DNA of 64,000 nt. Source: Sphingomonas natans. Lineage in GTDB: Bacteria > Pseudomonadota > Alphaproteobacteria > Sphingomonadales > Sphingomonadaceae. The notes under the pieces were generated by a model. That model was not told the DNA's origin and did no database searches. It saw only the letters and a program-made list of their open reading frames with translations. The DNA is taken from assembly GCF_030546695.1 (NCBI RefSeq), contig NZ_JAUOTP010000004.1, positions 62,001 to 126,000 of the forward strand, read 5' to 3'. The position numbers were made by a program, and so were the translations under genes. Below are positions 16,640 to 46,937 of this stretch, one piece after another. The first letter of the stretch is position 1. Each line of letters begins with the position of its first letter.

Positions 16640-16653
16640 TGGCAGCGCTGTCA
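16640..16653. promoter_or_regulatory. Palindromic operator-like site, copy 1
   Basis: TGGCAGCGCTGTCA, one mismatch from a perfect 14-bp palindrome with central CG. It sits 40 bp upstream of the first TonB-dependent receptor. The same element recurs at 25841, 40595, 43627 and 46924. A palindrome with central CG is the usual form of LacI-family operators, and a LacI-type regulator is encoded at 20291-21283, but the pairing is inferred. Confidence 0.65.
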
Positions 16654-16746
16654 TTTGTAAGCCAAATGCTCTATGGCGTGAAAAATTGGCGCGTCAAGAG
16701 CTGAAGCGCGGATGCTGCATTGACAGCGACACGATGCGGCGCGTGG

Positions 16747-18723
16747 TCATTCCGCTCGGATCGTGATGCGGACAATGGCAGCCGACGGATAGGCCAGCGT
16801 CAGGAGTTGGGTCGAACGCGCATAACGCCAGTCCGCCCCCTCGACCTCAATGGCTGGTGCTGCTCCAAAATGGACATGCGGTACGTACAGTTCCGCGAAA
16901 TCAGGGCCATTGCCCTCATCCAGATCGCCGATCTCCGCGGTAAAGATGAGCCGATCGATATCGAACGTCATTTCGATCAGGCGACCGGCTGTCCGTCGGA
17001 CAAAAGGCCGACAGAAGCCTGCAATCGCGCGACCGCCGGAATCCGGGTCGGCAGGATCGGTCTGCTGGTCCCGCGAGAAGATCGACAGATCCTCCTGGTT
17101 CCAGCCATCGCCGATCATGAGATCGTTGCGATTGCTCGCGGTGTAATTCCACTGGGTCGAGTGCAGTTGGAGTTGGTCCATCGCCTCGTACATCAAGGAA
17201 AGCGCCGCGACATGCTCGGCCCAAAGTTCGTCGCCATGATTCCCGGCCGCCCAGGCGGCGAAAGCCGCGCCGTGATCCAGGTCGTAGGGGATCCCGAATT
17301 CGCCGATCAGCGTCGGAGCGCCGGCAGGACCGAAGCCTCGCGCATGGCCGGCGATACGCCCCAGTTGCTCGCAATAGATCTGCTTCAGCGCGTTCCGCCC
17401 ATAGGAGGTTTCGCCCGTCGCGAAATCATAGGCGGCCTCAGGCTGGAATCGCTTGGTGTACAGTGTCGAATAATCATACCAATGACTGGCATTGACCGAA
17501 CGCTCGGGCATTTCTGCGGGAAACCCTTCCCCCGAGACGGCCGCATAAGGCTCGATCTCGGCGAAGACCCCCCAGGCCGGCTGGTGTGCCCGGGTGATGT
17601 CCGCCACTTTATGGAACAGCGGTGAATAGGCATCCTCTTCGGCGTTGAGCTCCCTGCCTCCGCGTCTTTGGAAGAAGTCGTCAGTCACCTCGGCGACGCG
17701 ATCGCCATCGAGGCGATAGGCTCCTGCGGCCTCGAAGGGACAGTCGAGGCCGTCGCGCCAGATCGATATGCGGTTGGCATTGACGATCTTGTCGGCCGGT
17801 GCGGACAGCGCGCCGGTCTGCGGGTCGCGAACGACGAGAGGCACCGCGACCGGGATGCCGCGTGCGGCCAGCAGGCAGTCCAGAGCCGACATCGCCAGTC
17901 CGAGCCTGGGTCGAAGCGCGTTTTCGAGGGTCGGCGCCACGTGCCGATAGGTCATGCGCCGCGTGATCCAACCGGTCACGGGCTCATTCAGCGTGTCGAA
18001 CCCGAGAACATTTTCGATGCCGGCGACCTTACGCGCGACCTGATCCATCGCGCCGAGATAATGCGACTGGAGAAAGTCCTGAACATTGACGCCATCGATC
18101 GTATAATCGGGTGTGAACAGGCGGCCCGTCCAAAAGAACGTCCACATGATGTTCGTCGGTGGCAGCCGGTGATTGCCGCCCCAACTCATCTGTGGGTAAG
18201 CGTCCTGCCAACCGCCGCGCTCATAATCATAAAGGTTCTGCATGACGTGCGACGCGTCCGCAGCGTGAAACTTGGTGAAGTCCAGGCCCACCGCCTCGAA
18301 CGTCCACCCCGGCGCCCCGCTGCCGCCGGTCATCCGGCTCCAGACATCCTGGTGGAAGTCGATCATGACGTACAGGCCGTATTTCGCCGCCCGGCGGCAG
18401 ATCTCGGCGAGGAAATCGAGATAGGCCTCGTCGTAGAGACCCGGTCCGGCATGCTCGACAGCCTCCCATGTCGTGACCAACCGGACCACATTGAAACCCC
18501 AATGGCTCAGCCGGCCGAGATGCTCGTCCGCTTCTTCGATCGGGAAGGGTCTGCCGATGAATGATACCTCACGATGATCGGCAAAATCGGTCGGGATGTT
18601 GGTTCCGCCGTCTGGATAAGGCAGCTTGCAGTCGCCGCCCAGATTCACCCCTCGCAGGATGACAGAACGGCCGGCGGTATCCCGAAACGTGTCCCCGACG
18701 ATCGTCAGGCGGTCATGAGCCAT
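16747..18723 (-). CDS. GH5 family hydrolase, endoglycoceramidase/steryl-glucosidase-like
   Basis: A 658-residue retaining beta-glycosidase. The catalytic acid is in DTLNEP (Glu about 247) and the nucleophile in LIGEFG (Glu about 475). Segments VIDFHQDVWSR-like (120-130), TGGSGAPGW (132-140) and RGVNLGGDCK (24-33) resemble the GH5 branch that acts on glucosylceramides and steryl glucosides. A beta-sandwich domain closes the protein. No signal peptide is visible, so the enzyme is probably cytoplasmic and acts after import; the divergent GPH symporter supports this. The ATG at 18723 is preferred because the prefix upstream is Arg-rich and not family-like. The aglycone is unknown. Confidence 0.85.
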   Translation of the reverse strand: MAHDRLTIVGDTFRDTAGRSVILRGVNLGGDCKLPYPDGGTNIPTDFADHREVSFIGRPFPIEEADEHLGRLSHWGFNVVRLVTTWEAVEHAGPGLYDEAYLDFLAEICRRAAKYGLYVMIDFHQDVWSRMTGGSGAPGWTFEAVGLDFTKFHAADASHVMQNLYDYERGGWQDAYPQMSWGGNHRLPPTNIMWTFFWTGRLFTPDYTIDGVNVQDFLQSHYLGAMDQVARKVAGIENVLGFDTLNEPVTGWITRRMTYRHVAPTLENALRPRLGLAMSALDCLLAARGIPVAVPLVVRDPQTGALSAPADKIVNANRISIWRDGLDCPFEAAGAYRLDGDRVAEVTDDFFQRRGGRELNAEEDAYSPLFHKVADITRAHQPAWGVFAEIEPYAAVSGEGFPAEMPERSVNASHWYDYSTLYTKRFQPEAAYDFATGETSYGRNALKQIYCEQLGRIAGHARGFGPAGAPTLIGEFGIPYDLDHGAAFAAWAAGNHGDELWAEHVAALSLMYEAMDQLQLHSTQWNYTASNRNDLMIGDGWNQEDLSIFSRDQQTDPADPDSGGRAIAGFCRPFVRRTAGRLIEMTFDIDRLIFTAEIGDLDEGNGPDFAELYVPHVHFGAAPAIEVEGADWRYARSTQLLTLAYPSAAIVRITIRAE

Positions 18724-18908
18724 GTGTGTCTCTCTTCTCGATCGGGCCGCAATGCCAGACCGCACCCGACGGGCAAGGCGCGAACGCAGCCGGACCCGAT
18801 CGGGCAAGCCAAAAAGCCGTCCTGCACAGCCCGGAGGGCGACGACGTGTTAAGGCGTCCGCACAGCGACGACACCAAAGGTCGCGACCGAGAGGAGTTCG
18901 TCGCCGAT

Positions 18909-20267
18909 ATGAAGCCTCACATCCCTTTGTATCGGAAGATCGGCTATGCCTTCGGGGATTATGGGTGCAATCTGTATTGGCAGAGCATCTCGTTTTTTCT
19001 GCTTTTCTTCTACACCGATATTGTTGGAATCCCGATCGGGATTGCAGGCCTCATCTATATGGTTGCGTCGATCTTCGACGGCTGCATCGATCCGATCGCG
19101 GGCGCTCTGCTCGACCGCGGCCGTACGCGGTTCGGCCGGTACCGCCATTGGCTTCTGATCGGTGCTGTCCCGCTCGCGGCGTCCTTCGCGCTGCTTTACT
19201 GGAAACCCGTAAGCCAGGGTTATACGATGCTGACGATTTTGCTTGTCGCGCATCTGCTGTTTCGCGTCTGCTATACGGTCGTTGCCGTCCCGCTGGCTTC
19301 GCTGTCCGCGCGCATGACAGACAGTTCCACCGAGCGCACCACATTGGCATCACTGCGCATGCTGTTCGGCGCGGGCGCGACGGCGACCGTAGGTTTCGTC
19401 ACGCAACCGTTGGGCGCCGCGATTGGCCATGGCGATCAGGCCCGGGGTATCTTTCTCGTAGCCCTGATCCTCGGGCTGGTTGCGACACTGGCGCTGGTGA
19501 TTGCCTTCCTCTCAACGCGTGAGCCGCCGGTTAACGATCACGCGCTCGCCCGCATTCCGCTTCGTTCCTATGTGGACTCGGTGCGGCTCAACCCTGCATT
19601 CATCGCGCTTGCATTCGGATTGTTGTTCGCGACGCTATCGACAACCTCGCTCAACAAATCCTTGCTCTATTACTTCAAATATGTGGTTCACGATGAAGGC
19701 AGCGCCCGATATGCCTTGTCGTCGGGGGCACTCATCTCGCTCATACTCGCTCCCGGTTGGGCCATCCTGGGCCGTCGCGCCGGCAAACGCGTGATGTGGC
19801 TTACAGCGGTGACCTGCGGGCTAGCCGGACTGATCTGTTTCCTGATCATTCGGCCGACAGGCCCTCTAACAGCCACCGCGTTCTTCATGTGGATGCAGAT
19901 CGTCACCGTCGGTATCCAGGTCAGCTATTGGGGAACGCTGCCGGATACGGTCGAGTATGGCGAATGGCGCTCGGGCGTGCGCCACGAATCGTTTTTGTTC
20001 GGGTTATTCATGTTCGTGCAGAAAGCCGGCTTTGGGCTTGCCGTGGCGATATACGGGGCTTGCCTGTCTGCGATCGGCTTTCATGCGAATGCCATGATGG
20101 CGTCGGGCACGCTGTGGGCGATCGGACTGGTCATGGCGGGCCTGTCGGCTTTCGGACTGATCGGGAGCGGGGTCGCGGCCTATCTCTCGCCGCTTCGGCT
20201 CGGTGTTCACGAACGCGTCGTTGGAAATCTCGCCGAGGCAGCGCGCACAGACGGGGCCGTTGCCTGA
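18909..20267 (+). CDS. GPH/MFS-type sugar-cation symporter
   Basis: A 452-residue inner-membrane protein with about 12 hydrophobic segments. It begins KIGYAFGDYGCNLYWQSI, then FFYTDIVGIP, and carries the loop DPIAGALLDRGRTRFGRYRHW, all typical of the glycoside-pentoside-hexuronide:cation symporter family. It should move a glycoside or sugar across the inner membrane. GAGAGGAG lies upstream of the ATG at 18909. The gene is divergent from the GH5 hydrolase with a 185-bp shared upstream region, suggesting that the imported glycoside is the GH5 substrate. Confidence 0.9.
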   Translation: MKPHIPLYRKIGYAFGDYGCNLYWQSISFFLLFFYTDIVGIPIGIAGLIYMVASIFDGCIDPIAGALLDRGRTRFGRYRHWLLIGAVPLAASFALLYWKPVSQGYTMLTILLVAHLLFRVCYTVVAVPLASLSARMTDSSTERTTLASLRMLFGAGATATVGFVTQPLGAAIGHGDQARGIFLVALILGLVATLALVIAFLSTREPPVNDHALARIPLRSYVDSVRLNPAFIALAFGLLFATLSTTSLNKSLLYYFKYVVHDEGSARYALSSGALISLILAPGWAILGRRAGKRVMWLTAVTCGLAGLICFLIIRPTGPLTATAFFMWMQIVTVGIQVSYWGTLPDTVEYGEWRSGVRHESFLFGLFMFVQKAGFGLAVAIYGACLSAIGFHANAMMASGTLWAIGLVMAGLSAFGLIGSGVAAYLSPLRLGVHERVVGNLAEAARTDGAVA

Positions 20268-20290: not shown

Positions 20291-21283
20291 TCAACTTACC
20301 TGCGCTGTGCTCGCCCGGATCTGCAACGTGAAGGGAATCTCCTCGAGCAGTTCGGGCTCGCTCCGACGCACGAGCAACTCGACCGCCAGCGCGCCGATGT
20401 CGAGCAGCGGCTGATGGATCGTCGTGAGAGACGGCCATATGAGCCTGCTCATCGGCGTGTCATCGAACCCGGCGATGGAGAGCCCGCGCGGCACATCGAT
20501 GCCAAGGTCGCGTGCAGCGATCATCACGCCGAGCGCCATCTCGTCATTGGCCGCGAAAACGGCCGTGGGCGGTGAAGCGAGAGACAACATAGCCCGCCCC
20601 GCCTCTATGCCCGACTGCACGTCGAAATAGCCTTGGGTTACATAATGCGGGCGCAGCTCGATGTCGGCGGCGGTCAGCGCATCGAGAAACCCGTCGAATC
20701 GCAGCGCCGCGCCCCGATGCTGGGGATGTCCACGGACCATTCCAATCCGCCGATGACCGAGGCTGATGAGATGCTCGGTAATCGCAGTCGCGGCGGCACG
20801 ATCGCGCATGAAGATCTGCAGCCCGTGCTCATGCTCCATCGACCCGACCTGCACGACACGCACGCCCCGACGACCGATCAGGTCAACAACCTCGCGATCG
20901 TCGGAAAGCGGCGGCGTGAGGATGATGCCGTCCGGCGCCAGGACCGAGATGATCCTTTCCACCATTCCCGGCAATTCGCCCGAATGCGCATCGAGCGATT
21001 CCACCACCAGATGATATCCCAGTTCGCGGCAGCGGCGGATCGCCCCCGACTGGATCCCGCCGATATAAGCGGAGTCGCTAGCCTGATATAAATGCGCGAC
21101 CAGGAAGGACTTGTTTCCGGCGAGCCGTCGCGCAGCCTGGCTGGGCTGATATCCCAGCTTACGCGCGGCGGATTCGACGCGCTCGCGAGTGGTGGGCCGG
21201 ACGTGAGGTTCGTTGTTCAGGACACGCGAAACCGTCTTGATAGATACCCCTGCCAGCTCCGCCAAATCGTAGATTGTTGGCAA
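20291..21283 (-). CDS. LacI-family transcriptional regulator
   Basis: About 330 residues. The N-terminal HTH reads TIYDLAELAGVSIKTVSRVL, with the hinge segment PSQAARRLAGNKS, followed by a periplasmic-binding-protein-like ligand domain. The TTG at 21283 is chosen because GGGAGG lies six bases upstream; an alternative TTG is at 21310. It lies just downstream of the GH106 gene on the same strand, so AraC-GH106-LacI probably form one operon. It is the best local candidate to bind the recurring TGACAGCSCTGTCA palindrome, one copy of which precedes this very operon, implying autoregulation and sugar-induced derepression. Confidence 0.92.
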   Translation of the reverse strand: MPTIYDLAELAGVSIKTVSRVLNNEPHVRPTTRERVESAARKLGYQPSQAARRLAGNKSFLVAHLYQASDSAYIGGIQSGAIRRCRELGYHLVVESLDAHSGELPGMVERIISVLAPDGIILTPPLSDDREVVDLIGRRGVRVVQVGSMEHEHGLQIFMRDRAAATAITEHLISLGHRRIGMVRGHPQHRGAALRFDGFLDALTAADIELRPHYVTQGYFDVQSGIEAGRAMLSLASPPTAVFAANDEMALGVMIAARDLGIDVPRGLSIAGFDDTPMSRLIWPSLTTIHQPLLDIGALAVELLVRRSEPELLEEIPFTLQIRASTAQVS

Positions 21284-21320: not shown

Positions 21321-24749
<3,429 letters not shown>

Positions 24750-24846
24750 GGTCTGACCTTCACGAGAGGCGGCCTTGGTCGGGATGGTCGCAAGAAGGAT
24801 CGCCGGCTTGCCGAATATCTTCGATCCGCAAGGCGTTGGCGAAATG

Positions 24847-25782
24847 CTAGCCTTCGTTTCGAAACGTCGAAGGTGACGAGCCGTAATGTTTGGCAAATGC
24901 GCGCGCGAATGCCGCACTGCTGTGATATCCAGACTCGAACGCGATGCGTGACACAGGTTGCCGCGTTGCGCGCAGCGACGTCGCTGCGACTTGTAGGCGT
25001 CTGCTGCTGATCATTTCGTGGACGCTGCATCCATAGAGCTCCCGAAATCCGCGGATGAGCTTTGCGCGACCTATCCCCGCGGCGCGCGCGATCTGACAGA
25101 TGGTGAGTTTTTCGGCGTAGCGCGTGACGATCAGGCGCCGGGCACGGTTGAGGTGCTCCCGGTCAGTGGCGGGGAGGCGAACATCGCCGCTGACCGAGAG
25201 AAGCTCGTTGCGAAGAAACGCGTCAATCGTTTCGCTGGTCAGTTCGTACAATTTGATCGTTCGAAAGACGATATCCGACATGTTGCCGCCAGCCGGACGG
25301 GCGAGCAGGCGGCACAGATCCTCCAGCCGAGACGTCAGAAGATACGTGCCCGGCCCGATCGCGACGTTGCACGCGTTCCTTTCCGTCTCCGCCCAGCCAG
25401 CGACCGCTGACGACGGGATACCACAAGCCAACAAGTGATGGGGTGCGACGCGAACGGCGTCTTCAAACGTAGCAGCCGCGATGATTTCGACGCGCGGCGC
25501 GGTGCCGGGCTCACTATGAAACACGAACGTCAGCCAGGGCCCCGACGCCCCGCCATCATTCTCCGTGCCAGGCAGAACCGCAAGGCGACGCGGCCCTGCC
25601 GGTGCAAATATCTCGGCGTGAGCCGGTTCGACGCCTCGGTCTCTCGTTGGGTTCCTTTCAGCCAGGGCACGGCTCGTCAAGGACAGGAACGCGGCGTCCT
25701 TCGGCTGCGATGGACGACTCTCCCGCGACGGCGCGTGCGCAAGATCGCTTCTTCCGCGCACATATTGTGCAGCGACTCCCAT
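24847..25782 (-). CDS. AraC-family transcriptional regulator
   Basis: A 311-residue protein. The C-terminal about 100 residues hold two helix-turn-helix motifs (KLTICQIARAAGIGRAKLIRGF and VSRIAFESGYHSSAAFARAF, the latter being the family signature). The N-terminal about 200 residues are not a recognisable cupin and may sense an effector. GGAAGGA lies seven bases before the ATG at 25782. It is the first gene of a probable operon with the GH106 rhamnosidase and the LacI regulator, and has a palindromic site 59 bp upstream. A rhamnose- or glycoside-responsive activator is plausible but unproven. Confidence 0.9.
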   Translation of the reverse strand: MGVAAQYVRGRSDLAHAPSRESRPSQPKDAAFLSLTSRALAERNPTRDRGVEPAHAEIFAPAGPRRLAVLPGTENDGGASGPWLTFVFHSEPGTAPRVEIIAAATFEDAVRVAPHHLLACGIPSSAVAGWAETERNACNVAIGPGTYLLTSRLEDLCRLLARPAGGNMSDIVFRTIKLYELTSETIDAFLRNELLSVSGDVRLPATDREHLNRARRLIVTRYAEKLTICQIARAAGIGRAKLIRGFRELYGCSVHEMISSRRLQVAATSLRATRQPVSRIAFESGYHSSAAFARAFAKHYGSSPSTFRNEG

Positions 25783-25840: not shown

Positions 25841-25854
25841 TGACAGCCCTGTCA
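25841..25854. promoter_or_regulatory. Palindromic operator-like site, copy 2
   Basis: TGACAGCCCTGTCA, with flanks extending it to TTGACAG-CC-CTGTCAA, a perfect inverted repeat. It is 59 bp upstream of the AraC start. Read on the minus strand it contains TTGACA, so an operator here could overlap a -35 box. It is identical over 14 bases to the site at 46924-46937. Confidence 0.7.
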
Positions 25855-28161: not shown

Positions 28162-28171
28162 CGCGCGATCC

Positions 28172-35766: not shown

Positions 35767-35798
35767 CATCGTCCCCCTATCCTTCGATTCGTTGTCGC

Positions 35799-38486
35799 TC
35801 AGCGAGGCGCCGTGATCCGAGTTTTGCCGCTCCCGAGCGGCCAATCGCGGCCGCCGAACACGAACGTTCCCGACACGCCGTCCGGAAGCTCGATTTCGGC
35901 TTCCAAGCCGGCCGCTCCTTGTCGATATCGCGTGCGGATCAGCCCCGCAGGATGCGCCATCGCTGCATCGACCATTTCGAGCGCGCCGAGTTGGGGCGCG
36001 ATCCGCACCTTTGAAAAGCCGCTGGCGGCCGGCTGAATGCCGGCAACATAGCTGAGCAGCCCGCTCGTCGGATGTGCGCTCCACGCGTGGCTGTCCGAAC
36101 GGCTCGGGTCCGGGTTTTCGGGCCAAGTCGTGAAATGCTGCTTGAGAAGGTCACGCCACGCATCCAGCAGTCCGAGATATCGATCGCCGAGGCCGGCATG
36201 ATCGAGCGCCCGGGCGAGGTAGAACGAGAAGTAGAAGGTGGTCCCGGTCATGCCTGCTGGCGCGTCGATCCCGTGACCCGGAACGATGATCCTTCGCAAT
36301 AGCCCGGCCTGCTCTGCCTTCGGCGCGACATCGTAAAGCACTGCCAGCGCGTTTGCGTGTTGACTGCAACTCGTCTTGGCGGGCGTATCGGCGTAGAGAC
36401 CGCGCCCCGCGTCCCAGCACTGGGCCTGAATCCCGCGCGCGGCGATCGCCGCCTGTTCCGCATCTTGACGCCCCCGTGCCGGATCGCCGATCGCGATTTC
36501 CAGATCAGCGGCCTCCTTCAGCGCTCCGAGGCGAAGCAGCGAGATCACGCAGCTGTCGGGCGCCTTGCCCGTGCGATCGCGTCCGCCATCGAGGCCATCG
36601 CGCCAATCGACGAACAGCCACCCCGGACTGGCCCGCACGATGCCGTCGTTGCGGACGAAAGGTGCGAACCAGTCGAGCACCGCGCGCATACCGGGAAGCG
36701 TTCGCTTCAGTACCGTCGGATCTGGTTGGCGCATCCAGTAATCGTGCAGCATCCCGATCCACAGCAGGGCGAACGGGGGAATCGGATTGCTGCCCGAGAT
36801 CGGCCATGACGATTGTGGCAGGCCATCCACCACGCGCGAATGATCGAACGCGTCGAGAGCCTGGATCGCAAGCTTCGGATCCCCGCCGATATCGTAGGAC
36901 AGTAACGCCTGGATGCGCGTGTCGCCGATATACTGAAGCTGCTCCCAATAGGCCGAATCCTGATAGGTTTCGTGCGCATCGAACAGACCGGTCATCCAGC
37001 CTATCCGCCAGATCTCGTTGAGTTGCGGATCGCTGCTGACGAAGTGGCCGCGCTGCTCGAACGGATATCCCGTTTCCCGAGTTTCGAAGCGGTCCAGCGT
37101 GATCGGCTGATCGCCGGTCTTCACGCGGATCTCGACATAGCGCCATGCCCGCCACCAGAAGGGTGCGAACCGTCGACCCGGTCGTCCGTCAGCCGTCAAT
37201 GTATCGGTCAGGCCAAGCGCAAGCCCGTCATCGATCCGGGCGCGATCGGCGAGCCGGAGCGGGCCGCCGCGATCGCCGCGTTTGACGGGATCGTACAACG
37301 CCTCGGCATAGGTGAGCGTGATCCTGGCCCCCCGCCCTCCGCTGACGATCAGCGTGGGATAGGCGGCAAGGACGCGCTGCGCGTCGATCAGCAGCCTCGC
37401 CTCGCTATGCGCGGGCACGACGGCCGCGCCATCGGGAAAGGCGCTCGCGGAGATGCCGTCCACGCGCACGACCCGGCCGCTGGGCACCGTCGCGTAACGC
37501 ATCTGCGGGAGCGCGTCCGGCACCAGCACACGCTTCTTCTCGCTCTGCGTGATCGCCGGCGCCGGCTCCTGCCAATCCGTCGCCGCGTCGGCGCCAGTCG
37601 TCCAGCCATCGATCTGCGCACCGGCGTCGATCTGCTCGGGCGCGCCGGCCGCATAATAAGTGGGGCCAACCTCGCCGATCAGCTGGCGCATGCCCGACCC
37701 GGCGTCCCTCGATCGATCGAGGCGGACGCGCCACAGGGGTCCCGTATCGATCGCAGCGTCGGCATCATGCTCCGCTTTGACCATGAAGCCCGTATGACCC
37801 GTCGAAATCTGCGCTACCGGTGCGACCTTGCCGTCGCTCCACACCTGCGCCGTGATCAGGTTCGGCCCGGCCTTCAGATAAGGCGCGAGATCCAGTGCTT
37901 CGTAGCGCCAATGCGCCAGATCGCCGCGGGCCGGACCTGCCGCGACGCGCAGACCGTTCACGTAGAGGATGAAGCGATTGTCCGCGCTGACGCGGATCGG
38001 CATTGTCGCCGGCTTGGCCGACAGGATCAGTCGACGCCGGAACTGAAGTGCGACCGGCTTCCCGCGGAAGTCCGCGACGAAGGCGGCCGGATGCGTGATC
38101 CACGGCGCGGCCACATCCAGTCGCGCCCTTGCAACTTCGTCCGCCGCGGCACGCGCGGCTGCGACGGCAGCGGGTGTGGGCGGAAGCGCGGCAAGCTCGC
38201 TGCCGATCCGCGTCAGGGCATCGCCTGGCAGATTATCGGGCGCGAAGCTGCGTATATCCGTCAGCGTCATCGCGCGGGCTTGCGGACCACCCGTGTTCAG
38301 CACCTTTGGCGCATAGCGACCGATGATGTCCCTCGCTCGCGCATCCTCCAGCAGAGTGCTCAGAGGCATCGCGCTCACGCTCGGACGCTCGGGCGTGATC
38401 ACGTGGTCTGCGTCCACCGCCTGCGAGAGCGCGCCGGAGGCGACGCCGGTTATCGCGAGACAGATGGAGAGAGCGACATATTTCAT
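35799..38486 (-). CDS. GH78-like alpha-L-rhamnosidase, exported
   Basis: An 895-residue protein beginning with the signal peptide MKYVALSICLAITGVASGA. Beta-sandwich domains with FILYVNGLRVAAGPARGD and a concanavalin-like segment with ITLTYAEALYDP precede an (alpha/alpha)6 barrel (DSAYWEQLQYIGDTRIQALLS, WPISGSNPIPPFALLWIGML) and a C-terminal beta-domain. This architecture matches GH78 rhamnosidases. It likely removes alpha-L-rhamnose in the periplasm. It sits between a small membrane-protein gene and the GH3 gene, all minus strand. Confidence 0.85.
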   Translation of the reverse strand: MKYVALSICLAITGVASGALSQAVDADHVITPERPSVSAMPLSTLLEDARARDIIGRYAPKVLNTGGPQARAMTLTDIRSFAPDNLPGDALTRIGSELAALPPTPAAVAAARAAADEVARARLDVAAPWITHPAAFVADFRGKPVALQFRRRLILSAKPATMPIRVSADNRFILYVNGLRVAAGPARGDLAHWRYEALDLAPYLKAGPNLITAQVWSDGKVAPVAQISTGHTGFMVKAEHDADAAIDTGPLWRVRLDRSRDAGSGMRQLIGEVGPTYYAAGAPEQIDAGAQIDGWTTGADAATDWQEPAPAITQSEKKRVLVPDALPQMRYATVPSGRVVRVDGISASAFPDGAAVVPAHSEARLLIDAQRVLAAYPTLIVSGGRGARITLTYAEALYDPVKRGDRGGPLRLADRARIDDGLALGLTDTLTADGRPGRRFAPFWWRAWRYVEIRVKTGDQPITLDRFETRETGYPFEQRGHFVSSDPQLNEIWRIGWMTGLFDAHETYQDSAYWEQLQYIGDTRIQALLSYDIGGDPKLAIQALDAFDHSRVVDGLPQSSWPISGSNPIPPFALLWIGMLHDYWMRQPDPTVLKRTLPGMRAVLDWFAPFVRNDGIVRASPGWLFVDWRDGLDGGRDRTGKAPDSCVISLLRLGALKEAADLEIAIGDPARGRQDAEQAAIAARGIQAQCWDAGRGLYADTPAKTSCSQHANALAVLYDVAPKAEQAGLLRRIIVPGHGIDAPAGMTGTTFYFSFYLARALDHAGLGDRYLGLLDAWRDLLKQHFTTWPENPDPSRSDSHAWSAHPTSGLLSYVAGIQPAASGFSKVRIAPQLGALEMVDAAMAHPAGLIRTRYRQGAAGLEAEIELPDGVSGTFVFGGRDWPLGSGKTRITAPR

Positions 38487-38546
38487 CGGGCGGATCCGTC
38501 TGTGCTTGTTGCGATAGTGCCGCTGAGGAGTGCGCCGGGATCGCAA

Positions 38547-38860: not shown

Positions 38861-40498
38861 TCAGCGGATCGAGCCGGCGTTCTTTTCCGTCTCCCAGAAC
38901 AACCGTTCGGTCTTTTCGGGATCTGCGATGAGCGTACATTGCACGTCGATCAGCATCGTCTCGCGCCGGTCGATCGTGTACGGCTTCCACTCGGGCTGGC
39001 CGGCAATTGAGGGGCGACCGGTGCGCGCGAAAGCGGCCCACATCGCGCTCATGTTCGCGGCGGTCTGTCGCTTGCCGGGCGTGAGGTCGCTGAGCGGGTT
39101 TGGCGGCGCGCTTGTGCCGGGCGGCGGCACGACGTTATCGAATTTGGTGCCGATGTCGGAGGCATGCGGCGACCCTATTGGATAATCGGTCTGGGGCACC
39201 TTCGTCGGCGATTGATAGTCGAGAATATACGAATAGACCGGCGCCGCGCCCTCCTGCGCCTTCTGCTCCGCAACCCGCACGGCATAAGCGCGCCACGGTG
39301 TCGCCGTTGTAATGGCGATATAGAGCTGCGAGGGCGACGCGTTGGGCCGGGATCCCCTGAATGTGCGGATCCAGTCGTCGGTTCGATCACCGAGCATGAG
39401 CGCCAGGCGCTGCCGCAAATCTTCGTCCGACATCGAGAATGTCGATTTGTCCCCGAGATTGAAGAAAACGGCCTCGTCCTTGCAGCCGCCGACGATCAGC
39501 GGCTTTTGCGCGGAAAGGGCCGGCGCATGATCCTTGAAAGGAGATTCTGGGAGGATCGCGCCGTCGATGATCGGCCAGAACATGCGATCCCGATTATTGC
39601 GTTGCGCGCCACCCGTCCGTTCGCCCGGCACGGCCGCATCGGCTTCGCCCGTCTGGAAACGAAGCAATTGCTCGGCCGGGAGCTCGAGAAGTTTTCGCGG
39701 GTCGGTCAGACCGAGCGCACGCATCGCCTCCCGCGCGATTTCGGTCGCTTCCTCCGGCGCACGATCACCCGGACCCACAGGACTCTCGATGGAGGCCTTG
39801 TGGAACAGGGGTGCGGCGGCGGGCATGGCATAAAGCGCGGCCGTCTTGCCGCCCCCCCCGCTCTCTCCGAATATCATGACGTTGTGAGGATCGCCGCCAA
39901 AGGCCGCAATATTCTCGTTCACCCACGTCAACGCAGCCACGAGATCGAGCAGGCCCTGATTGCCCTGATATTCAGGGCCCAGCAATTGCCCGAGGTAGAG
40001 ATACCCCATGACGCCAAGACGATGGTTCGATTCCACGACGACCACGTCATAAAGCCTGGCCAGATTGGCACCGTTTTGACTTGGCCTGTTGCCCGATCCG
40101 ACGGTGAATCCGCCGCCATGGCTGTAGAACATGACCGGGCGCCTGGCACCGTCGGCCGCCGGGGTCCAGATGTTCAGAAAGAGACAATCCTCGGCAGCCG
40201 CGGGCTCGCCGGGAAACCCGCCGGCTTGGATTGCGGGGGCTCCATATTGCGTCGCATCCCGGACCCCTGTCCACGCAGGCGGCGGCGGCGGCGCCCGAAA
40301 GCGCCGATCCGGTCCGGATACGCTGCCGCCATAGGGCACGCCCCGGAAGGCCTGTGCGCCGCGCTCGATCATTCCGCGCAAACGCCCCTGAGCGGTCATC
40401 ACGACGGGATTGGCATCCTTCGCGAAGGCCTTCGACGCCAGCGCCCCCCAGCCGAGCGCGGCGGCGCCGCCAAGTATGGTTCTGCGAGACCAGTCCAT
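38861..40498 (-). CDS. Type-B carboxylesterase, Tat-exported
   Basis: A 545-residue alpha/beta hydrolase. The N-terminus MDWSRRTILGGAAALGW has the twin-arginine motif (SRRTIL) followed by a hydrophobic stretch, so export by Tat is likely. The oxyanion motif HGGG is at about 127-130 and the nucleophile elbow is GESGGGG (Ser about 213), with EDCLFLNIW upstream, all carboxylesterase/lipase family B. AGGAGG lies a few bases upstream of the ATG at 40498. It probably leads the operon esterase, small membrane protein, GH78, GH3. A palindromic site lies 97 bp upstream. Confidence 0.92.
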   Translation of the reverse strand: MDWSRRTILGGAAALGWGALASKAFAKDANPVVMTAQGRLRGMIERGAQAFRGVPYGGSVSGPDRRFRAPPPPPAWTGVRDATQYGAPAIQAGGFPGEPAAAEDCLFLNIWTPAADGARRPVMFYSHGGGFTVGSGNRPSQNGANLARLYDVVVVESNHRLGVMGYLYLGQLLGPEYQGNQGLLDLVAALTWVNENIAAFGGDPHNVMIFGESGGGGKTAALYAMPAAAPLFHKASIESPVGPGDRAPEEATEIAREAMRALGLTDPRKLLELPAEQLLRFQTGEADAAVPGERTGGAQRNNRDRMFWPIIDGAILPESPFKDHAPALSAQKPLIVGGCKDEAVFFNLGDKSTFSMSDEDLRQRLALMLGDRTDDWIRTFRGSRPNASPSQLYIAITTATPWRAYAVRVAEQKAQEGAAPVYSYILDYQSPTKVPQTDYPIGSPHASDIGTKFDNVVPPPGTSAPPNPLSDLTPGKRQTAANMSAMWAAFARTGRPSIAGQPEWKPYTIDRRETMLIDVQCTLIADPEKTERLFWETEKNAGSIR

Positions 40499-40594: not shown

Positions 40595-40608
40595 CGATAG
40601 CGCTGTCA
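40595..40608. promoter_or_regulatory. Palindromic operator-like site, copy 3
   Basis: CGATAGCGCTGTCA, 12 of 14 bases matching the palindrome consensus, with the conserved CTGTCA half on the side away from the esterase start. Located 97 bp upstream of the esterase ATG. Confidence 0.55.
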
Positions 40609-40743
40609 TTTTTCGCGGTGTTATTGCTCTGTTTTGCCGAACCTTAGAATATCACACGGCCAAATGGCAAGTCGGACAAGCGGCCATGATGACGCCAAGC
40701 GATCGGCGAAATTTCGGTAGGATTGCGCACGTCGTCATGAGTC

Positions 40744-41345: not shown

Positions 41346-43574
41346 TCAGAATGTCATGCTGGCACGCAAGCCATATTCGCGCGGCGCTCCATATAGCTCG
41401 TTATTCCCAACTTGACCGGAGACATATTTCTTGTTGGTCAGATTGTTTGCGAAACCCTCGACCTGCCAATTGCCGTTTCGGTAGGTCAACAGCGCCGATA
41501 CAAGGCCGCGAGATCTTAACAGATCGAACGTCTGCGAATAGAACAGGCCGGCATATTGCTTGCTGACGAAGGCATAGTTCAGCCTGGGCGTGAGCGACCC
41601 GCTGCCGCCCAGTCCGATGCTGTATTGCGCGCCTGCATTATACGTCCACCGAGGCGAAAGCAGATTCGATCGTCCACCAGCCGTGCTCGTGAAGGGGACG
41701 TAATTGAAGCAGGTGGGTGGGTTTGACGGCGTTCCCGCAGCGCATTGCGGCCCCAGATTGCCCGCAGGAAGCAAACGTGGATTGACCGAACTGAATCCCG
41801 GCAACTTGCTGTCCACATAAGATGCGGCAGCATCCGCGGAAAATCCGCCAAACTTCGCCTGGATCTGCGCCTCGATGCCTTTGATCGTCGCATTGGTCAG
41901 GTTGGTGACGCCATTCTGGCCGCTGGTGACGTCGATGACGCCGAACTGAAAGCCGTGATAATCGTTATAGAAGGCGTCGATCTGGGTCCGGATGTGGCTG
42001 TCTGCTAACGTGGACTTCCACCCCAATTCGTAATTCCAGACCGTTTCCGGTTTGAACTTGGAAGCTGCCGAATTGTACCCCCCGGGCTTATATCCACGGG
42101 CTGCGAACGCATAGAGAAGATTGTCCGGGTCGATCTTGTAATTGAGCGCAAACTTGCCCGTGACGCGTCCGTCGCGATTGCCCGCGGCCAGATCGGCAAC
42201 TTGAAGGCCGCCCGGCGGAAAACCGGGAACGCCTACTCCGATCCGGACCGCCCCGCTCCCGCTTGCCTTGAAGTGCGAATAGCGCAGGCCGAATTGCGCC
42301 TCCAATTTGTCGGTCAACTGATAGTTTGTCTGCGCGAACAACCCGGTCGTGTACTTATACTGCTGCTGCATCACGTTCAGCCCTGGCCCGGCCGGATCGG
42401 TCTGGGAAAGCCGCACATTGATGCGGTTTCTTTGATAATAACCGCCGAGGATCCAGTCGAACGGTCCATCGGTCGGCGATATCAGATTGATCTCCCCGCT
42501 CAGTTGCCGCTCGCGGACATATTGATCGGTTGCGATCGACGCCAACTCGGTCGCATCATTATCGTACAGAAGGTTGACATGTTTGTCCTGATAGCCGGCT
42601 ATCGCACGCAGGGTCACATCGTTGGCGAATGAGTATTTGAATTCGCCGCTATGGATGCGGGCATATTCGTGCCCGCGCGATCGCGCATTATAATCGACTG
42701 TCCGAATGTCGTTGGTACGCCCTGGCGCGTATAGGGTTCCCAGGATCGGCCTGTAAGCAAAGCCGCCTGTATCATGCTCGAGGATCTCGGTCTTCAACAG
42801 GGCCTGAAAGTCACCGGGTTTCCACAGAAGCAGGACGCGCCCGGCTTTCTCGTCGAGCCGTCCCGGATGCGTATCGCCCGGGCCGATGTCGTTATAATAG
42901 CTATCATGACGGCGATACTGGCCCGCAACGCGAATGCCGAGCGTCGTCGTGATCGGGAGGTTGAGCGCGCCTTGGACGCCGGCGGCATCATAATTGCCGT
43001 ATTGCGCATCGATATAGCCGCCGGCTCTGTCGAGCTTAGGAAGCTCCGAATTGATGAAGATCGCGCCGCCGGTCGAATTGGACCCGACCAGCGTCCCCTG
43101 CGGGCCGCGCAGGACCTCGACGCTCGCTATATCGTAAAACGCGCCGGTGGCCACGATCGGCGGCTGGAAGATGCCGTCCGCATAGGTCGCGACGCCATTG
43201 GCGACCGACGGAGAGCCAGACGCGAGACCGATGCCCCTGATATTGGCAGACTGGACCAGTCCCCCATCGGTCACGCTCAGCGACGGGGCCGCGAATTGCA
43301 GATCGGAAAGTCGCGTGACCGCCTTTTCCGTGAGTCCGCGCGCGGACAATGCCGTTGCCGCGATCGCCAGGTTTTGCAGGTTTTCGGTCCGGCGCTGCGC
43401 GGTGACTATGATTTCCGCCAGTCCGTCCGATGATGGGACCGCGGCGCTCGATGAAGCGGACGCAGACGAGCTCTGCGGCGCACCCGGCGCCGCGGGCGGG
43501 CCAACTTGGGCGAGCACCGGATTTGGTATCAGGCACAGCGGCGCACAGGACATCCACAGATGGGCAACTTTCAT
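41346..43574 (-). CDS. TonB-dependent outer-membrane receptor
   Basis: A 742-residue receptor starting MKVAHLWMSCAPLCLIPNPVLAQ, a signal peptide. A Ser/Ala-rich linker precedes the plug (EIIVTAQRRTENLQNLAIAATAL, of the iron-siderophore-like subtype common in sphingomonads), then a barrel ending YGLRASMTF. GGGAGGATG upstream supports the ATG at 43574. It is divergent from the tannase-like esterase, with the palindromic site and tandem repeats between them, so the two are probably co-regulated in uptake and hydrolysis of an esterified phenolic or glycoside. Confidence 0.93.
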   Translation of the reverse strand: MKVAHLWMSCAPLCLIPNPVLAQVGPPAAPGAPQSSSASASSSAAVPSSDGLAEIIVTAQRRTENLQNLAIAATALSARGLTEKAVTRLSDLQFAAPSLSVTDGGLVQSANIRGIGLASGSPSVANGVATYADGIFQPPIVATGAFYDIASVEVLRGPQGTLVGSNSTGGAIFINSELPKLDRAGGYIDAQYGNYDAAGVQGALNLPITTTLGIRVAGQYRRHDSYYNDIGPGDTHPGRLDEKAGRVLLLWKPGDFQALLKTEILEHDTGGFAYRPILGTLYAPGRTNDIRTVDYNARSRGHEYARIHSGEFKYSFANDVTLRAIAGYQDKHVNLLYDNDATELASIATDQYVRERQLSGEINLISPTDGPFDWILGGYYQRNRINVRLSQTDPAGPGLNVMQQQYKYTTGLFAQTNYQLTDKLEAQFGLRYSHFKASGSGAVRIGVGVPGFPPGGLQVADLAAGNRDGRVTGKFALNYKIDPDNLLYAFAARGYKPGGYNSAASKFKPETVWNYELGWKSTLADSHIRTQIDAFYNDYHGFQFGVIDVTSGQNGVTNLTNATIKGIEAQIQAKFGGFSADAAASYVDSKLPGFSSVNPRLLPAGNLGPQCAAGTPSNPPTCFNYVPFTSTAGGRSNLLSPRWTYNAGAQYSIGLGGSGSLTPRLNYAFVSKQYAGLFYSQTFDLLRSRGLVSALLTYRNGNWQVEGFANNLTNKKYVSGQVGNNELYGAPREYGLRASMTF

Positions 43575-43626: not shown

Positions 43627-43640
43627 TGCTAGCGCTGTCA
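43627..43640. promoter_or_regulatory. Palindromic operator-like site, copy 4
   Basis: TGCTAGCGCTGTCA, 12 of 14 matches to the palindrome consensus, located in the divergent promoter region 53 bp upstream of the receptor and 84 bp upstream of the tannase-like gene. Confidence 0.6.
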
Positions 43641-43649
43641 GAATCACTT

Positions 43650-43676: not shown

Positions 43677-43723
43677 TGATTTTTGAGAGATAGCCGGGGC
43701 AACCGGTGTTGAGGAGAGATGGC

Positions 43724-45433
43724 ATGGGCACGAACCGCACTTGGATCGCACGCCGGATAGGCTCGATCAGCTTGATCCTGGCCATTGCAGGCCTTGCAGC
43801 GCAGCGCGGGACAGCCGCCCCGGTCGCGGGATCGCTGTCACCCGACAGATGCCGCGCCGGTCTGCCGGTCCGATTGAGCGGAAACGGGGCCAGAATAGAG
43901 CGAGCCACGCGCCTCGCCGCGGGACGGGTCGGCGATGCTGACTTGCCGGCACATTGCGAGATCTTCGGGATCCTCGGCGAACATCATGGTGTTGACGGCC
44001 AGGATTATGCGATCCGGTTCCATCTGCGTTTGCCCGACGATTGGAACGGCCGGTTCCTGTTCCAGGGGGGCGGAGGCACCAATGGCGAGATCGGGAACGC
44101 AACCGGCCCAGTCTCGCGCGGAACCCCCTCCGCTCTGCAGCGGGGCTACGCGGTCGTGAGTCAGGATTCGGGTCACGACAATCGCCGCAACGGCAATCCG
44201 CTGCGCGGTGGCGCGACGGCATTCGGGTTCGATCCGCAGGCACGCGCGGATTATGGCCACGCCTCGCTGGCGCCCGTTGCCCGCGCCGCGCGGGCGATCA
44301 TCTTGGCTTATTATCGAACTGCCCCCGCTTTCTCGTATTTCGTCGGCTGCTCCAAGGGCGGCGAGGAGGGGATGGTCCTCGCCCAGAAACATCCCACGCT
44401 TTTCGATGGCATCGTCGCCGCCGCCCCCGGCTTCGCGCTGCCCCGCGCAGCGGTCGCCCAGGTCTGGGACGTGCAGGCGATGGCCAAGGCGACCGGCTCT
44501 GACGTACCGACCCTGGCAGCGCTGGCGAAGGTCTTCAGCGATGCCGATCTCGCCCTCGCCGGGAAGGCCGTACTGGCCGCCTGCGACGCTGACGACGGTC
44601 TGATCGACGGCATCGTTGCCGCGATCGGAAGTTGCACCGACGATAGGGTGCGCGGCGTTCTGGATCGGACCGTTTGCATCGGCGACAAGACGCAAGCCTG
44701 TTTGTCCTCAACGCAGCTCGCCGTACTCGCGCGCGTCATGGGCGGCGCCCGCAAGCCGGATGGCACGCTCGTTTATGCGCGCTGGCCGTGGGACCCGGGC
44801 ATTGCATCACCCGGCTGGCGCCTGTGGAAACTGGGTAGCGCGGACGGCAAGATTCCCGCGCTGAATGTCGTGTTGGGCGGCGCGTCCCTGCCGTCGGTGT
44901 TCAGCGTCCCCCCTACCCCCGTTCCGGCGGATCCATCGGCGTTGCTGGCGTGGGAGATGCGATACGACTTCGCAACGGACGTGGATCGGATCTATGCGAC
45001 GGGTGGCGCCTTCGCCCGATCGGGCTGGCAGGATGTTTCGGCGCGCTCGCCCGATCTCGCCGCCTTCCGGGCGCACGGTGGCAAAATGGTCGTTCCACAT
45101 GGAGTGGCGGATCCTGTCTTCTCGATCGACGATACGATCGATTGGTATCGGCAGGTCGATGCCCGCTCCGGTGGCGACGCCGCCGGCTTCGTCCGGCTGT
45201 TTCCCGTGCCCGGGATGAACCACTGCGGCGGTGGCCCGGCAACGGACGAATATGATGCGCTCGCGGCGCTCGTCGATTGGGTGGAACGGAAGCACGCGCC
45301 CGATGCCATCATCGCAACCGCCGGACCCAACACGCCTTGGCCCGGCCGAACCCGGCCACTCTGCCCGTTCCCGAAGACAGCTCGCTATGTCGGCGGCGAC
45401 AAGGAGAAGGCCAGCGCTTTTATCTGCAGCTGA
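43724..45433 (+). CDS. Tannase/feruloyl esterase-family hydrolase, exported
   Basis: A 569-residue protein with a signal peptide (ISLILAIAGLAAQRGTAAP). The nucleophile elbow is GCSKGGEEG (Ser about 210), preceded by GGGGTNGEIG and SQDSGHDN, and the C-terminal PGMNHCGGGPATDEYDA carries the catalytic His flanked by Cys, all hallmarks of the tannase/feruloyl esterase family. It cleaves gallate or hydroxycinnamate esters in characterised relatives. GAGGAG lies seven bases before the ATG at 43724. It is convergent with the ceramidase-like gene and divergent from the receptor. Confidence 0.9.
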   Translation: MGTNRTWIARRIGSISLILAIAGLAAQRGTAAPVAGSLSPDRCRAGLPVRLSGNGARIERATRLAAGRVGDADLPAHCEIFGILGEHHGVDGQDYAIRFHLRLPDDWNGRFLFQGGGGTNGEIGNATGPVSRGTPSALQRGYAVVSQDSGHDNRRNGNPLRGGATAFGFDPQARADYGHASLAPVARAARAIILAYYRTAPAFSYFVGCSKGGEEGMVLAQKHPTLFDGIVAAAPGFALPRAAVAQVWDVQAMAKATGSDVPTLAALAKVFSDADLALAGKAVLAACDADDGLIDGIVAAIGSCTDDRVRGVLDRTVCIGDKTQACLSSTQLAVLARVMGGARKPDGTLVYARWPWDPGIASPGWRLWKLGSADGKIPALNVVLGGASLPSVFSVPPTPVPADPSALLAWEMRYDFATDVDRIYATGGAFARSGWQDVSARSPDLAAFRAHGGKMVVPHGVADPVFSIDDTIDWYRQVDARSGGDAAGFVRLFPVPGMNHCGGGPATDEYDALAALVDWVERKHAPDAIIATAGPNTPWPGRTRPLCPFPKTARYVGGDKEKASAFICS

Positions 45434-45448
45434 GCGAGATCGGGCGCG

Positions 45449-46867
45449 TCAGCGGGATAGTTCGCCGATCAGCCCCAGGCTGGCGTTCACGATACCATCC
45501 TCCGCGCAACCGGGCTTCAGGCGGGACGAGATGACCTGGAAAGTCAGCCTCGGGCTCGCTTCGTTTGAGTAGATATAGCCGGAATTGGCGGCCCCGTTGG
45601 CGAGCGTCGTCATCATCAGCTTCCTGACGGGCGCCTCGCGCTTCAGGCGGGCGGCGATGTCACTGTAGACCTCGCCGTTTACGGTCGCGATATAGATGTC
45701 GCCGATCCGCAGCATCCCGACCTTGAGGTTGACCGGCGCGCCGTCGGCGTAAGGCGGCAGCACGCCCTCCCGAACCGCATTGTCGCGATCGAGACGATCG
45801 CGGCCGGGGCACTGGAAGGCCCTTTGCGCCCCCCTGATCTCGGCCGTGTCGGCCAGGGCACGCTGATCGATCATCGCCTGAATGGCGCTTTCGCCGATAA
45901 TGGTGCCCATCGCCTCGACCAGCTGCACGGTGTTCTCGATCGCGGCGTCGTAGGCGACCTGCTCCGCGGGAGCGATCGGAATCGCCATCTGCGCGTCGTC
46001 CCGGGCGACCGGATTGCGCTCGTTCAGATTGCGCTGCCACGGTGGGGGCGCGGTGATCGCCTGATCCTTCGCTGCCGGCGAGTGGGTCCGGACCGAGATC
46101 AGTTGACGCTCCGGTCGCTGGAGACGGGGATTCTGATCGCCGGATGCGCCCTGCGCGAAGATGGCCACGGTCCGCGGTCCGTAATGCTGCTCGACATAGC
46201 GGGACGCCGCCCCGGCGAAATCGCCACTGATGACGCCCGAATGATAGAAGTTCACCGGATGCATCGCATAATTCATGTACACCGCGATTGGATTGCCGCG
46301 TGCGTCGAGCAGATCGACGACGGCGAGCGTCTTGTCCGACTTGCCGTCGACATTTGGTCCCTGGAGCCATCGGCCATCGACGAAATAATCGCGATTGACG
46401 TTGAGATGGACGTCGGCCGTCGCATAGCCGATCCGCGCCGGGCGCATCGCGGCCTTGGCCGATTCCACGGCCGTCACGATCGCATTTTCTATGGTCTTGG
46501 CTGTCGGCTCGCCTGCGCCGCCGAGGCCGCCGGTCGATCCGCTATGGGTGTGCGTCGCCGAGATAACGAAATTCTCGGCCGGGCATTTGGCGATCTTGGA
46601 AGCGCGCTCGGTGGCCGGTTTGACGAGTGCATCGCGCAGACCGCCTTGATCGACACCCACGATGACCGCGCATCGCCCATGATCGCTGATGACGACGGCA
46701 CGCGCATAGAGGCGGTCGACGATACGGTCGCCCGCAGAAAGCGCCCGCGCCGGGGGAGTGATCTCGACCTTGCCCGCTCCGGCTATCAGTCCTTCTGCCT
46801 GCGCCTTCGTGGAGCTGCATATCGCGACGATAGCGAACGATGCGAGCAGGATCGTCGATGCTTTCAC
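45449..46867 (-). CDS. Neutral/alkaline ceramidase-like exported protein
   Basis: A 472-residue protein. The start region KASTILLASFAIVAICSSTKAQA is a signal peptide. The mature part resembles the N-terminal domain of neutral ceramidases: IAGAGKVEITPP, then SATHTHSGSTGG (His about 106 and 108, probable zinc ligands), MHPVNFYHSGVISGDF and AIFAQGASGDQNPR. Characterised relatives hydrolyse the amide bond of ceramide, but many proteins of this group in sugar-utilisation loci have no known substrate. It is shorter than ceramidases of about 650 residues, lacking the usual C-terminal domain. A GTG at 46867 with GGAAGAG upstream is chosen. A palindromic site lies 57 bp upstream. Confidence 0.82.
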   Translation of the reverse strand: MKASTILLASFAIVAICSSTKAQAEGLIAGAGKVEITPPARALSAGDRIVDRLYARAVVISDHGRCAVIVGVDQGGLRDALVKPATERASKIAKCPAENFVISATHTHSGSTGGLGGAGEPTAKTIENAIVTAVESAKAAMRPARIGYATADVHLNVNRDYFVDGRWLQGPNVDGKSDKTLAVVDLLDARGNPIAVYMNYAMHPVNFYHSGVISGDFAGAASRYVEQHYGPRTVAIFAQGASGDQNPRLQRPERQLISVRTHSPAAKDQAITAPPPWQRNLNERNPVARDDAQMAIPIAPAEQVAYDAAIENTVQLVEAMGTIIGESAIQAMIDQRALADTAEIRGAQRAFQCPGRDRLDRDNAVREGVLPPYADGAPVNLKVGMLRIGDIYIATVNGEVYSDIAARLKREAPVRKLMMTTLANGAANSGYIYSNEASPRLTFQVISSRLKPGCAEDGIVNASLGLIGELSR

Positions 46868-46923
46868 TGATCTCTTCCCGATGGCGCCGGATTCCCGATC
46901 CTTCGCAACAGGCTGCAGCATGA

Positions 46924-46937
46924 TGACAGCCCTGTCA
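46924..46937. promoter_or_regulatory. Palindromic operator-like site, copy 5
   Basis: TGACAGCCCTGTCA, identical to copy 2, located 57 bp upstream of the ceramidase-like start. The similar distance (57 and 59 bp) for the two identical copies suggests a conserved promoter architecture. Confidence 0.7.

What the first reader, a model, noticed from the sequence alone, without database searches (positions are those of the whole stretch)
16640..46937. A shared 14-bp palindrome links five promoters of the catabolic region
Five intergenic sites match TGACAGCSCTGTCA: 16640-16653, 25841-25854, 40595-40608, 43627-43640 and 46924-46937. Each lies 40-97 bp upstream of a minus-strand start: receptor 1, AraC-GH106-LacI, the esterase-GH78-GH3 group, receptor 2 (divergent from the tannase-like gene), and the ceramidase-like gene. 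Two copies are identical. Central CG symmetry suits a LacI-type protein, and one is encoded inside the region. This defines a regulon over about 30 kb without experimental input.
Basis: partly seen in the sequence, partly recalled or inferred. Interest (0 to 1): 0.85.

Follow-up and report, generated by a model that had tools for sequence, protein, structure and literature searches.

The report
LacI operator set of rhamnoside locus
Five promoters in a cluster of plant-sugar-digesting genes carry the same short DNA palindrome, most likely the binding site of a sugar-sensing repressor encoded in the same cluster; this is a well-supported new example of a familiar kind of bacterial gene switch.

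Summary
The five palindromes are real and at the stated places, but only two match the quoted consensus exactly (the others have 1, 2 and 2 mismatches). With a free central dinucleotide the window has exactly these five sites within two mismatches and none for the reversed control. One of six other genus genomes (G249) holds a rearranged copy of the locus and keeps the palindrome upstream of the four units it shares: 52 of 56 site bases identical against 46% around them. An 8-mer count with no motif assumed returns only this palindrome.

The LacI-type protein is the best candidate. Its recognition helix (IK-TVSR) is kept in G249. Around 80 LacI homologues the motif is enriched (36 sites against 2), and lysine at the second recognition position goes with C at the fourth base from the centre, as in 8 of 10 half-sites here.

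I read it as a local, self-regulated LacI-family regulon of a TonB-receptor carbohydrate-utilization locus, probably for rhamnose-bearing plant glycosides. Mildly unusual: two operators lack the family's usual central CG. New member of a known kind; binding, repression and effector are untested.

The parts
16640..16653 (-). operator 1, TGACAGCGCTGCCA (minus strand), 39 bases before the preferred start (16600) of TonB-dependent receptor 1
   Evidence: 14/14 identical in G249
25841..25854 (-). operator 2, TGACAGGGCTGTCA (GG/CC centre), 58 bases before the preferred AraC start (25782); heads AraC-GH106-LacI
   Evidence: 14/14 identical in G249, centre included
40595..40608 (-). operator 3, TGACAGCGCTATCG, 96 bases before the preferred esterase start (40498); heads esterase-GH78-GH3
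   Evidence: G249 has AGACAGCGCTGTCT at the aligned place, 11/14 identical
43627..43640 (-). operator 4, TGACAGCGCTAGCA, between the divergent TonB-dependent receptor 2 and tannase-like gene
   Evidence: neither gene has a match in the 80 kb of G249 examined, so not tested by conservation
46924..46937 (-). operator 5, TGACAGGGCTGTCA (GG/CC centre), 56 bases before the preferred ceramidase-like start (GTG 46867)
   Evidence: 13/14 identical in G249, which has TGACAGTGCTGTCA
20291..21283 (-). LacI-family regulator, recognition helix IK-TVSR; proposed binder of all five sites
   Evidence: Pfam LacI 4e-19, Peripla_BP_3 2e-34; 83% identical ortholog in G249
21321..24917 (-). GH106 alpha-L-rhamnosidase (longest ORF; start not settled)
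   Evidence: Pfam 6e-286; 81% identical in G249
24847..25782 (-). AraC-type regulator, first gene of the operon
   Evidence: 50% identical overall in G249, DNA-binding domain well kept
13730..16600 (-). TonB-dependent receptor 1
   Evidence: 84% identical in G249
38861..40498 (-). carboxylesterase-family gene
   Evidence: 78% identical in G249
35799..38546 (-). GH78 alpha-L-rhamnosidase-like gene (longest ORF)
   Evidence: 79% identical in G249
33547..36126 (-). GH3 glycoside hydrolase (longest ORF; start not settled)
   Evidence: 77% identical in G249
41346..43574 (-). TonB-dependent receptor 2
43706..45433 (+). tannase/feruloyl-esterase family gene, divergent from receptor 2
   Evidence: Pfam Tannase 1e-106
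45449..46867 (-). ceramidase-like gene
   Evidence: Pfam Ceramidase_alk 4e-19, partial; 77% identical in G249
16747..18807 (-). GH5 gene (longest ORF), divergent from MFS; in the locus but without the operator in either species
18726..20267 (+). GPH-type MFS sugar transporter (longest ORF); in the locus but without the operator in either species

Best explanation
The palindrome is the operator of the LacI-family protein encoded at 20291-21283. As a dimer it binds TGACAG-NN-CTGTCA at five promoters and, with no inducer, represses outer-membrane uptake (two TonB receptors), the rhamnosidase and GH3 operons, the esterase-type genes, and its own operon through the AraC-GH106-LacI promoter. A rhamnose-bearing glycoside or a breakdown product releases it. 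Shown: the sites, their conservation in a second species and their association with this LacI class. Inferred: binding by this protein, repression rather than activation, the inducer and the substrate.
For: Five sites and no control hits in the window; exact TGACAGNNCTGTCA in 20 of 249 family genomes, own genome included, and the own genome's only two copies lie here. Conserved at the 4 of 4 site-bearing units shared with G249, although intervening genes differ: 52/56 site bases against 304/664 around them. An 8-mer count over 6 promoter groups, no motif assumed, returns only pieces of this palindrome in 5 groups. 36 sites in 22 of 80 LacI-homologue loci against 2 in 2 for the reversed control; among CG-centred perfect palindromes there TGACAG ties with TGGAAG for the commonest half-site, 6 of 80 loci each. 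K at the second recognition position goes with C at the fourth base from the centre in 28 of 34 locus-letter pairs, V with A in 6 of 6, M with T in 1 of 1; here 8 of 10 half-sites have that C. Three of the four other LacI-family proteins of the genome lie near different palindromes, the FK-type one again with C. Distances and self-regulation fit the family survey (PMC4052901, passages).
Against: Two of five operators lack the central CG usual in this family, and two half-sites have T, not C, at the fourth base. The 55% and 54% identical Novosphingobium homologues (L050, L051), with the same IK helix, have no site within two mismatches in about 10 kb each side. At least 38 of the 72 K-type loci gave no site of the shape counted. 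The transporter and GH5 have no site in either species. A conserved AraC and an IclR are also encoded in the locus. No sigma-70-type promoter was called at any of the five sites. Site 4 has no conservation test. Conservation rests on one other genome, and the 80 loci include close relatives.
Confidence: 0.82

Rival explanations
1. The palindrome is bound by another regulator of the locus: the IclR-type (12799-13689), the AraC-type (24847-25782) or the MarR-type protein (40744-41223).
For: All three lie in the locus. IclR and AraC counterparts are in G249 too, and the AraC DNA-binding domain is well conserved.
Against: MarR has no match at E 1e-10 in the G249 stretch although the sites persist. 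IclR is 50% identical with a changed recognition helix while the sites are nearly unchanged. The motif is enriched around LacI homologues in other genera and follows LacI residues. AraC-type sites are usually not short inverted repeats (recalled).
Confidence: 0.1
2. Two regulators share the sites: LacI takes the three CG-centred ones, another factor the two with other centres (AraC operon, ceramidase-like gene).
For: The centre splits the sites into two classes, and the two classes stay apart in G249. In the family survey 1173 of the 1251 regulators with even palindromes have a CG centre (PMC4052901, passages).
Against: The six-base arms of the non-CG sites are perfect and fit the LacI residue rule. 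The same survey counts 49 regulators with another centre and 29 with a degenerate one.
Confidence: 0.06
3. The motif is chance or a structural palindrome without regulatory role.
For: At 3 mismatches the window count is only modestly above shuffling. In the G249 stretch 7 matches within two mismatches stand against 2 for the reversed control, and 3 of the 7 are not at predicted places.
Against: Conservation in G249 and recovery without an assumed motif. A terminator-like structure was called at one of the five sites only (40595, plus strand).
Confidence: 0.02

Closest known systems
sux CUT locus of Xanthomonas campestris with the LacI-family repressor SuxR (PMC1790865; passages read)
   Same: TonB receptor, inner-membrane transporter, degrading enzyme and LacI-type repressor in one locus; the regulator also controls its own gene
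   Different: That locus is for sucrose with one receptor; here two receptors and several rhamnosidase, GH3 and esterase-type genes over 30 kb. Orthology to SuxR was not tested.
LacI-family local sugar regulons of RegPrecise (Ravcheev et al. 2014, PMC4052901; passages read)
   Same: Even palindrome, sites mostly 30-140 bases before starts, self-regulation, sugar-utilization targets
   Different: Two of five operators here lack the central CG. The words Sphingomonadales and Xanthomonadales do not occur in that main text; the database itself was not searched.
LacI-family rhamnose regulators (RhaR, RhmR, RhiR; PMC3870299; passages read)
   Same: LacI-type control of genes for rhamnose-bearing oligosaccharides
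   Different: Other lineages; the words Sphingomonadales and GH106 do not occur in the main text. Motifs there are 20-bp palindromes that I could not compare letter by letter.
GH3/GH106/GH78 saponin genes of Sphingobium RC1 (PMC10653915; passages read)
   Same: Same enzyme trio in close proximity in another sphingomonad
   Different: Enzymes tested on steroidal saponins; LacI and TonB do not occur in the main text. Substrate here unknown.
CcpA/cre of Bacillus (PMC10992428; passages read)
   Same: The perfect form TGACAGCGCTGTCA was designed there as a cre site, and CcpA, a LacI-family protein, is reported to shift probes bearing it
   Different: Global catabolite regulator in Bacillus, artificial site in an artificial promoter

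Membership tests
LacI/GalR family regulator | LacI HTH plus periplasmic-binding-protein-like sensor domain | tested here: met
   Pfam LacI 4e-19, Peripla_BP_3 2e-34
LacI/GalR family regulator | TVSR recognition helix with R paired to G at the sixth base from the centre | tested here: met
   IK-TVSR; G at that base in 10 of 10 half-sites; rule from PMC2978694 (passages)
LacI/GalR family regulator | Residue at the second recognition position predicts the fourth base from the centre | tested here: met
   K with C in 28 of 34 locus-letter pairs; 8 of 10 half-sites here have C, two have T. General rule from PMC2978694 (passages and sections 8-9); its table for IK is not in the text held.
LacI/GalR family regulator | Central CG in the operator | tested here: inconclusive
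   CG in 3 of 5 here and 2 of 4 in G249. Usual but not obligatory (PMC4052901).
LacI/GalR family regulator | Binds the sites and is released by a sugar effector | not testable with these tools
   needs protein
CUT locus (TonB-receptor carbohydrate utilization locus) | TonB receptor, inner-membrane sugar transporter, degrading enzymes and regulator together | tested here: met
CUT locus (TonB-receptor carbohydrate utilization locus) | Uptake and induction by a given carbohydrate | not testable with these tools
   needs growth and transport assays

The most novel reading that the evidence does not exclude
The two non-CG operators are functional and selected for: one LacI-type dimer recognises CG-, GG/CC- and TG/CA-centred sites with the same arms, so that the operon carrying its own gene and the ceramidase-like gene are tuned to a different induction threshold from the receptors. 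A conserved exception to the central-CG rule would bear on how hinge-helix insertion sets operator strength.
Probability: 0.25. Interest if true: 0.5.

Novelty: new member of a known kind. Interest (0 to 1): 0.4.

Why it matters
It turns a 30-kb stretch of enzymes into one testable unit: two uptake receptors, two rhamnosidase-family genes, a GH3 gene and three esterase-type or ceramidase-like genes predicted to respond to one inducer. That ties the little-known ceramidase-like and tannase-like genes to rhamnoside use by shared control. The residue-to-base agreement lets operators of related LacI proteins be predicted, and the conserved non-CG centres offer a natural test of a family rule.

Tried and rejected
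A second operator-like site at 16617 (TCAAAGCGCTGCAA), seen by eye, was dropped: it is not conserved in G249.

The GH5/MFS divergent promoter was aligned for a missed site; it has conserved blocks but no palindrome.

A consensus sigma-70 scan at the five sites found nothing, so the operator position relative to a promoter is left open.

Further orthologous loci: the best-scoring LacI in 249 family genomes, own aside, is 47% identical; in 396 order genomes none but the own passed E 1e-95, with up to 5 candidates scored per genome; on plasmids all 4286 best places are under 60% and the 20 rows listed reach 46%. Receptor 1 in 249 family genomes gave at best 45% at E 1e-200, 3 candidates scored per genome; the ceramidase-like protein none but the own at E 1e-120. 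G249 (7 genus genomes with the own) is the only one in which I found the locus. The loci were not searched for sites.

Rows dropped: one search scored only perfect CG-centred palindromes, only those with TG..A and a CG centre, which leaves out non-CG sites like two of ours. Of the palindromes listed around the paralogues (5, 2 and 3 rows) I name only those beginning with TG; the others begin with CG or GG, among them CGTAAGCGCTTGCG just before the SM-type gene.

Other one-mismatch places: C6:140480 and C10:57324 in the own genome and C1:2519090 in G249 lie inside predicted ORFs; C1:4707090 in G249 lies outside the ORFs listed.

A 17-base block upstream of operator 3 looked like a second regulator's site, but its core's only other exact match in the window lies inside the ceramidase-like gene.

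Literature: the exact 14-mer occurs in one paper of the library. By titles and abstract starts, the rows listed (20 of 131; 20 of 99), 45 and 47 include no paper on this regulon; this covers only that open-licence library.
Full report
What is there. The five palindromes lie at the stated positions. Read on the minus strand they are TGACAGCGCTGCCA (16640), TGACAGGGCTGTCA (25841), TGACAGCGCTATCG (40595), TGACAGCGCTAGCA (43627) and TGACAGGGCTGTCA (46924). All five keep a full TGACAG arm on that strand; the other arm is perfect in two. The preferred starts put them 39, 58, 96, 52 and 56 bases upstream of receptor 1, AraC, esterase, receptor 2 and the ceramidase-like gene. In three of these the longest ORF would run over the site.

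Chance. At three mismatches the consensus gives 16 strand hits against a shuffled mean of 8.4, which is weak. At two mismatches with a free centre the window holds exactly the five, and the reversed control none. In the genome (4.56 Mb) I count 28 places within two mismatches of the CS consensus, 5 of them in the 30.3-kb span; the Poisson estimate is 6e-7, but it is post hoc. Genome-wide strand hits are 50 against 37 for the reversed control, so outside the locus the pattern is near control level. Exact TGACAGNNCTGTCA occurs in 20 of 249 genomes drawn from the family, own genome included; the two copies of the own genome are both here.

Conservation. Of the 7 genus genomes searched, own included, one other (G249) has an 83% identical LacI. 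I took 80 kb around it and mapped the window proteins: receptor 1, GH5, MFS, LacI, GH106, AraC, GH3, GH78, esterase, ceramidase-like and IclR are there. Receptor 2, tannase-like, MarR, LysR and the glycolate/malate-synthase genes had no match at E 1e-10 in that stretch, apart from what the receptor-1 query hit, and other genes stand between. The palindrome is upstream of all four shared site-bearing units: identity 14/14, 14/14, 11/14 and 13/14, against 304 of 664 aligned bases (46%) in the rest of those promoters; a binomial estimate is 8e-14, optimistic because the alignment may be anchored by the site. Counting 8-mers (one mismatch allowed) over six promoter groups, required in both species where there are two (receptor 2 is window only), only pieces of this palindrome reach five groups; none reaches six, and by the alignment GH5/MFS is the group without it. 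In the G249 stretch 7 places match within two mismatches, against 2 for the reversed control. Four are the predicted ones; 2421949 and 2424782 lie in the GH3 and AraC genes, and 2415453 just past the predicted end of an esterase-like gene. Over the whole G249 genome the CS pattern gives 60 strand hits against 44 for the control.

Who binds. The locus encodes LacI, AraC, IclR, MarR and LysR proteins. MarR has no match in the G249 stretch. IclR is 50% identical there, with changes in the recognition helix; AraC is 50% overall with a well-kept DNA-binding domain; the LacI recognition helix is identical. Around 80 LacI homologues from named genomes (the best 80 of 462) there are 36 sites within one mismatch of TGACAGNNCTGTCA in 22 loci, against 2 in 2 loci for the reversed pattern. 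With no motif assumed, TGACAG and TGGAAG are the commonest half-sites of CG-centred perfect palindromes, 6 of 80 loci each. They separate by recognition residues: TGGAAG in 6 of 6 RV-TVSR loci, TGACAG in 4 IK and 2 PK loci. Among TG..A, CG-centred sites, K-type loci have C at the fourth base from the centre in 28 of 34 locus-letter pairs (A 3, T 2, G 1), V-type A in 6 of 6, M-type T in 1 of 1. 72 of the 80 loci are K-type, so at least 38 of them show no such site, and related loci are not independent. In the window 8 of 10 half-sites have the C, and two (at 40595 and 43627) have T. Camas et al. 2010 (PMC2978694; passages and sections 8-9) state that residues 15 and 16, mainly 16, set these bases in the TVSR group; their table for IK is not in the text held.

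The same genome as control. It holds five LacI-family proteins over the Pfam cut-off. The SM-type one on C9 lies within about 11 kb of TGGTAGCGTTACCA and TGATAGCGCTATCA, the SA-type one on C9 near TGAAAGCGCTTTCA and TGAAAGCGCTTTCG, the FK-type one on C6 near TGTCAACGTTGACA and TGACAACGCTGACA (other rows dropped are told under Tried and rejected). The fifth (KK, C5) has no such site in its 3-kb locus, and no more of its surroundings was read. So at least three paralogues appear to own another palindrome class, which fits the TGACAG set belonging to the window's LacI. Cross-binding was not tested.

Results against. L050 and L051 (Novosphingobium, 55 and 54% identical, IK helix) have no site within two mismatches in the flanks held. 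L053 and L124 (Phenylobacterium) have related sites with two mismatches: one just before its LacI gene in L053, two before ORFs in L124. Two of our five centres are not CG. The transporter and GH5, obvious partners, lack the site. No promoter was called by the consensus scan.

How it probably works. A LacI-type dimer represses uptake, the hydrolase operons and its own operon; a sugar from the imported glycoside releases it. This is the pattern shown for SuxR in Xanthomonas, where suxAB, suxC and suxR are over-expressed in the regulator mutant without sucrose (PMC1790865, passages). In the family survey 72% of regulators are self-regulated and more than 75% of sites lie 30-140 bases upstream (PMC4052901, passages). 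The substrate is inferred: GH106, GH78 and GH3 together suggest a rhamnosylated plant compound; in Sphingobium RC1 enzymes of the same three families act on steroidal saponins (PMC10653915, passages).

Verdict. A well-supported, ordinary kind of regulon in a locus that I found in two of the genomes searched. Its one less usual trait is the conserved non-CG centre at two operators.

Noticed in passing
40663-40679 (minus strand): A 17-base block, TTGTCCGACTTGCCATT, upstream of operator 3 is identical in G249 and is the longest conserved run of that promoter; perhaps a core promoter or another regulator's site.
   Followed up: partly
26065-33468: Glycolate-oxidase-like genes, malate synthase G and a LysR gene stand between GH3 and the AraC operon; they have no operator within two mismatches and no match in the G249 stretch, where GH3 and AraC are adjacent, so the locus was interrupted or rearranged.
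   Followed up: partly
47026-47101 (minus strand): A tRNA with CAT anticodon lies just upstream of the ceramidase-like gene and is not in the aligned G249 promoter; a possible island edge.
   Followed up: no
18640-18860: The GH5/MFS divergent promoter has its own conserved blocks (CTTGCCCGATCGG; CTGGCATTGCG) without the palindrome, possibly a site for AraC or IclR.
   Followed up: partly
L131 9823-16227 (G249 C1:2426823-2433227): G249 has a second GH106 gene (72% identical) and another TonB receptor between AraC and the first GH106; not seen among the window ORFs scanned.
   Followed up: no
L066, L098, L110, L111, L117, L120: A separate LacI class with RV-TVSR goes with TGGAAGCGCTTCCA in 6 of 6 loci; one has two perfect copies, three have a second copy with one change, TGAAAGCGCTTCCA.
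   Followed up: partly
56066-56397 (minus strand): Predicted tmRNA gene, tag ANDNEALAIAA.
   Followed up: no
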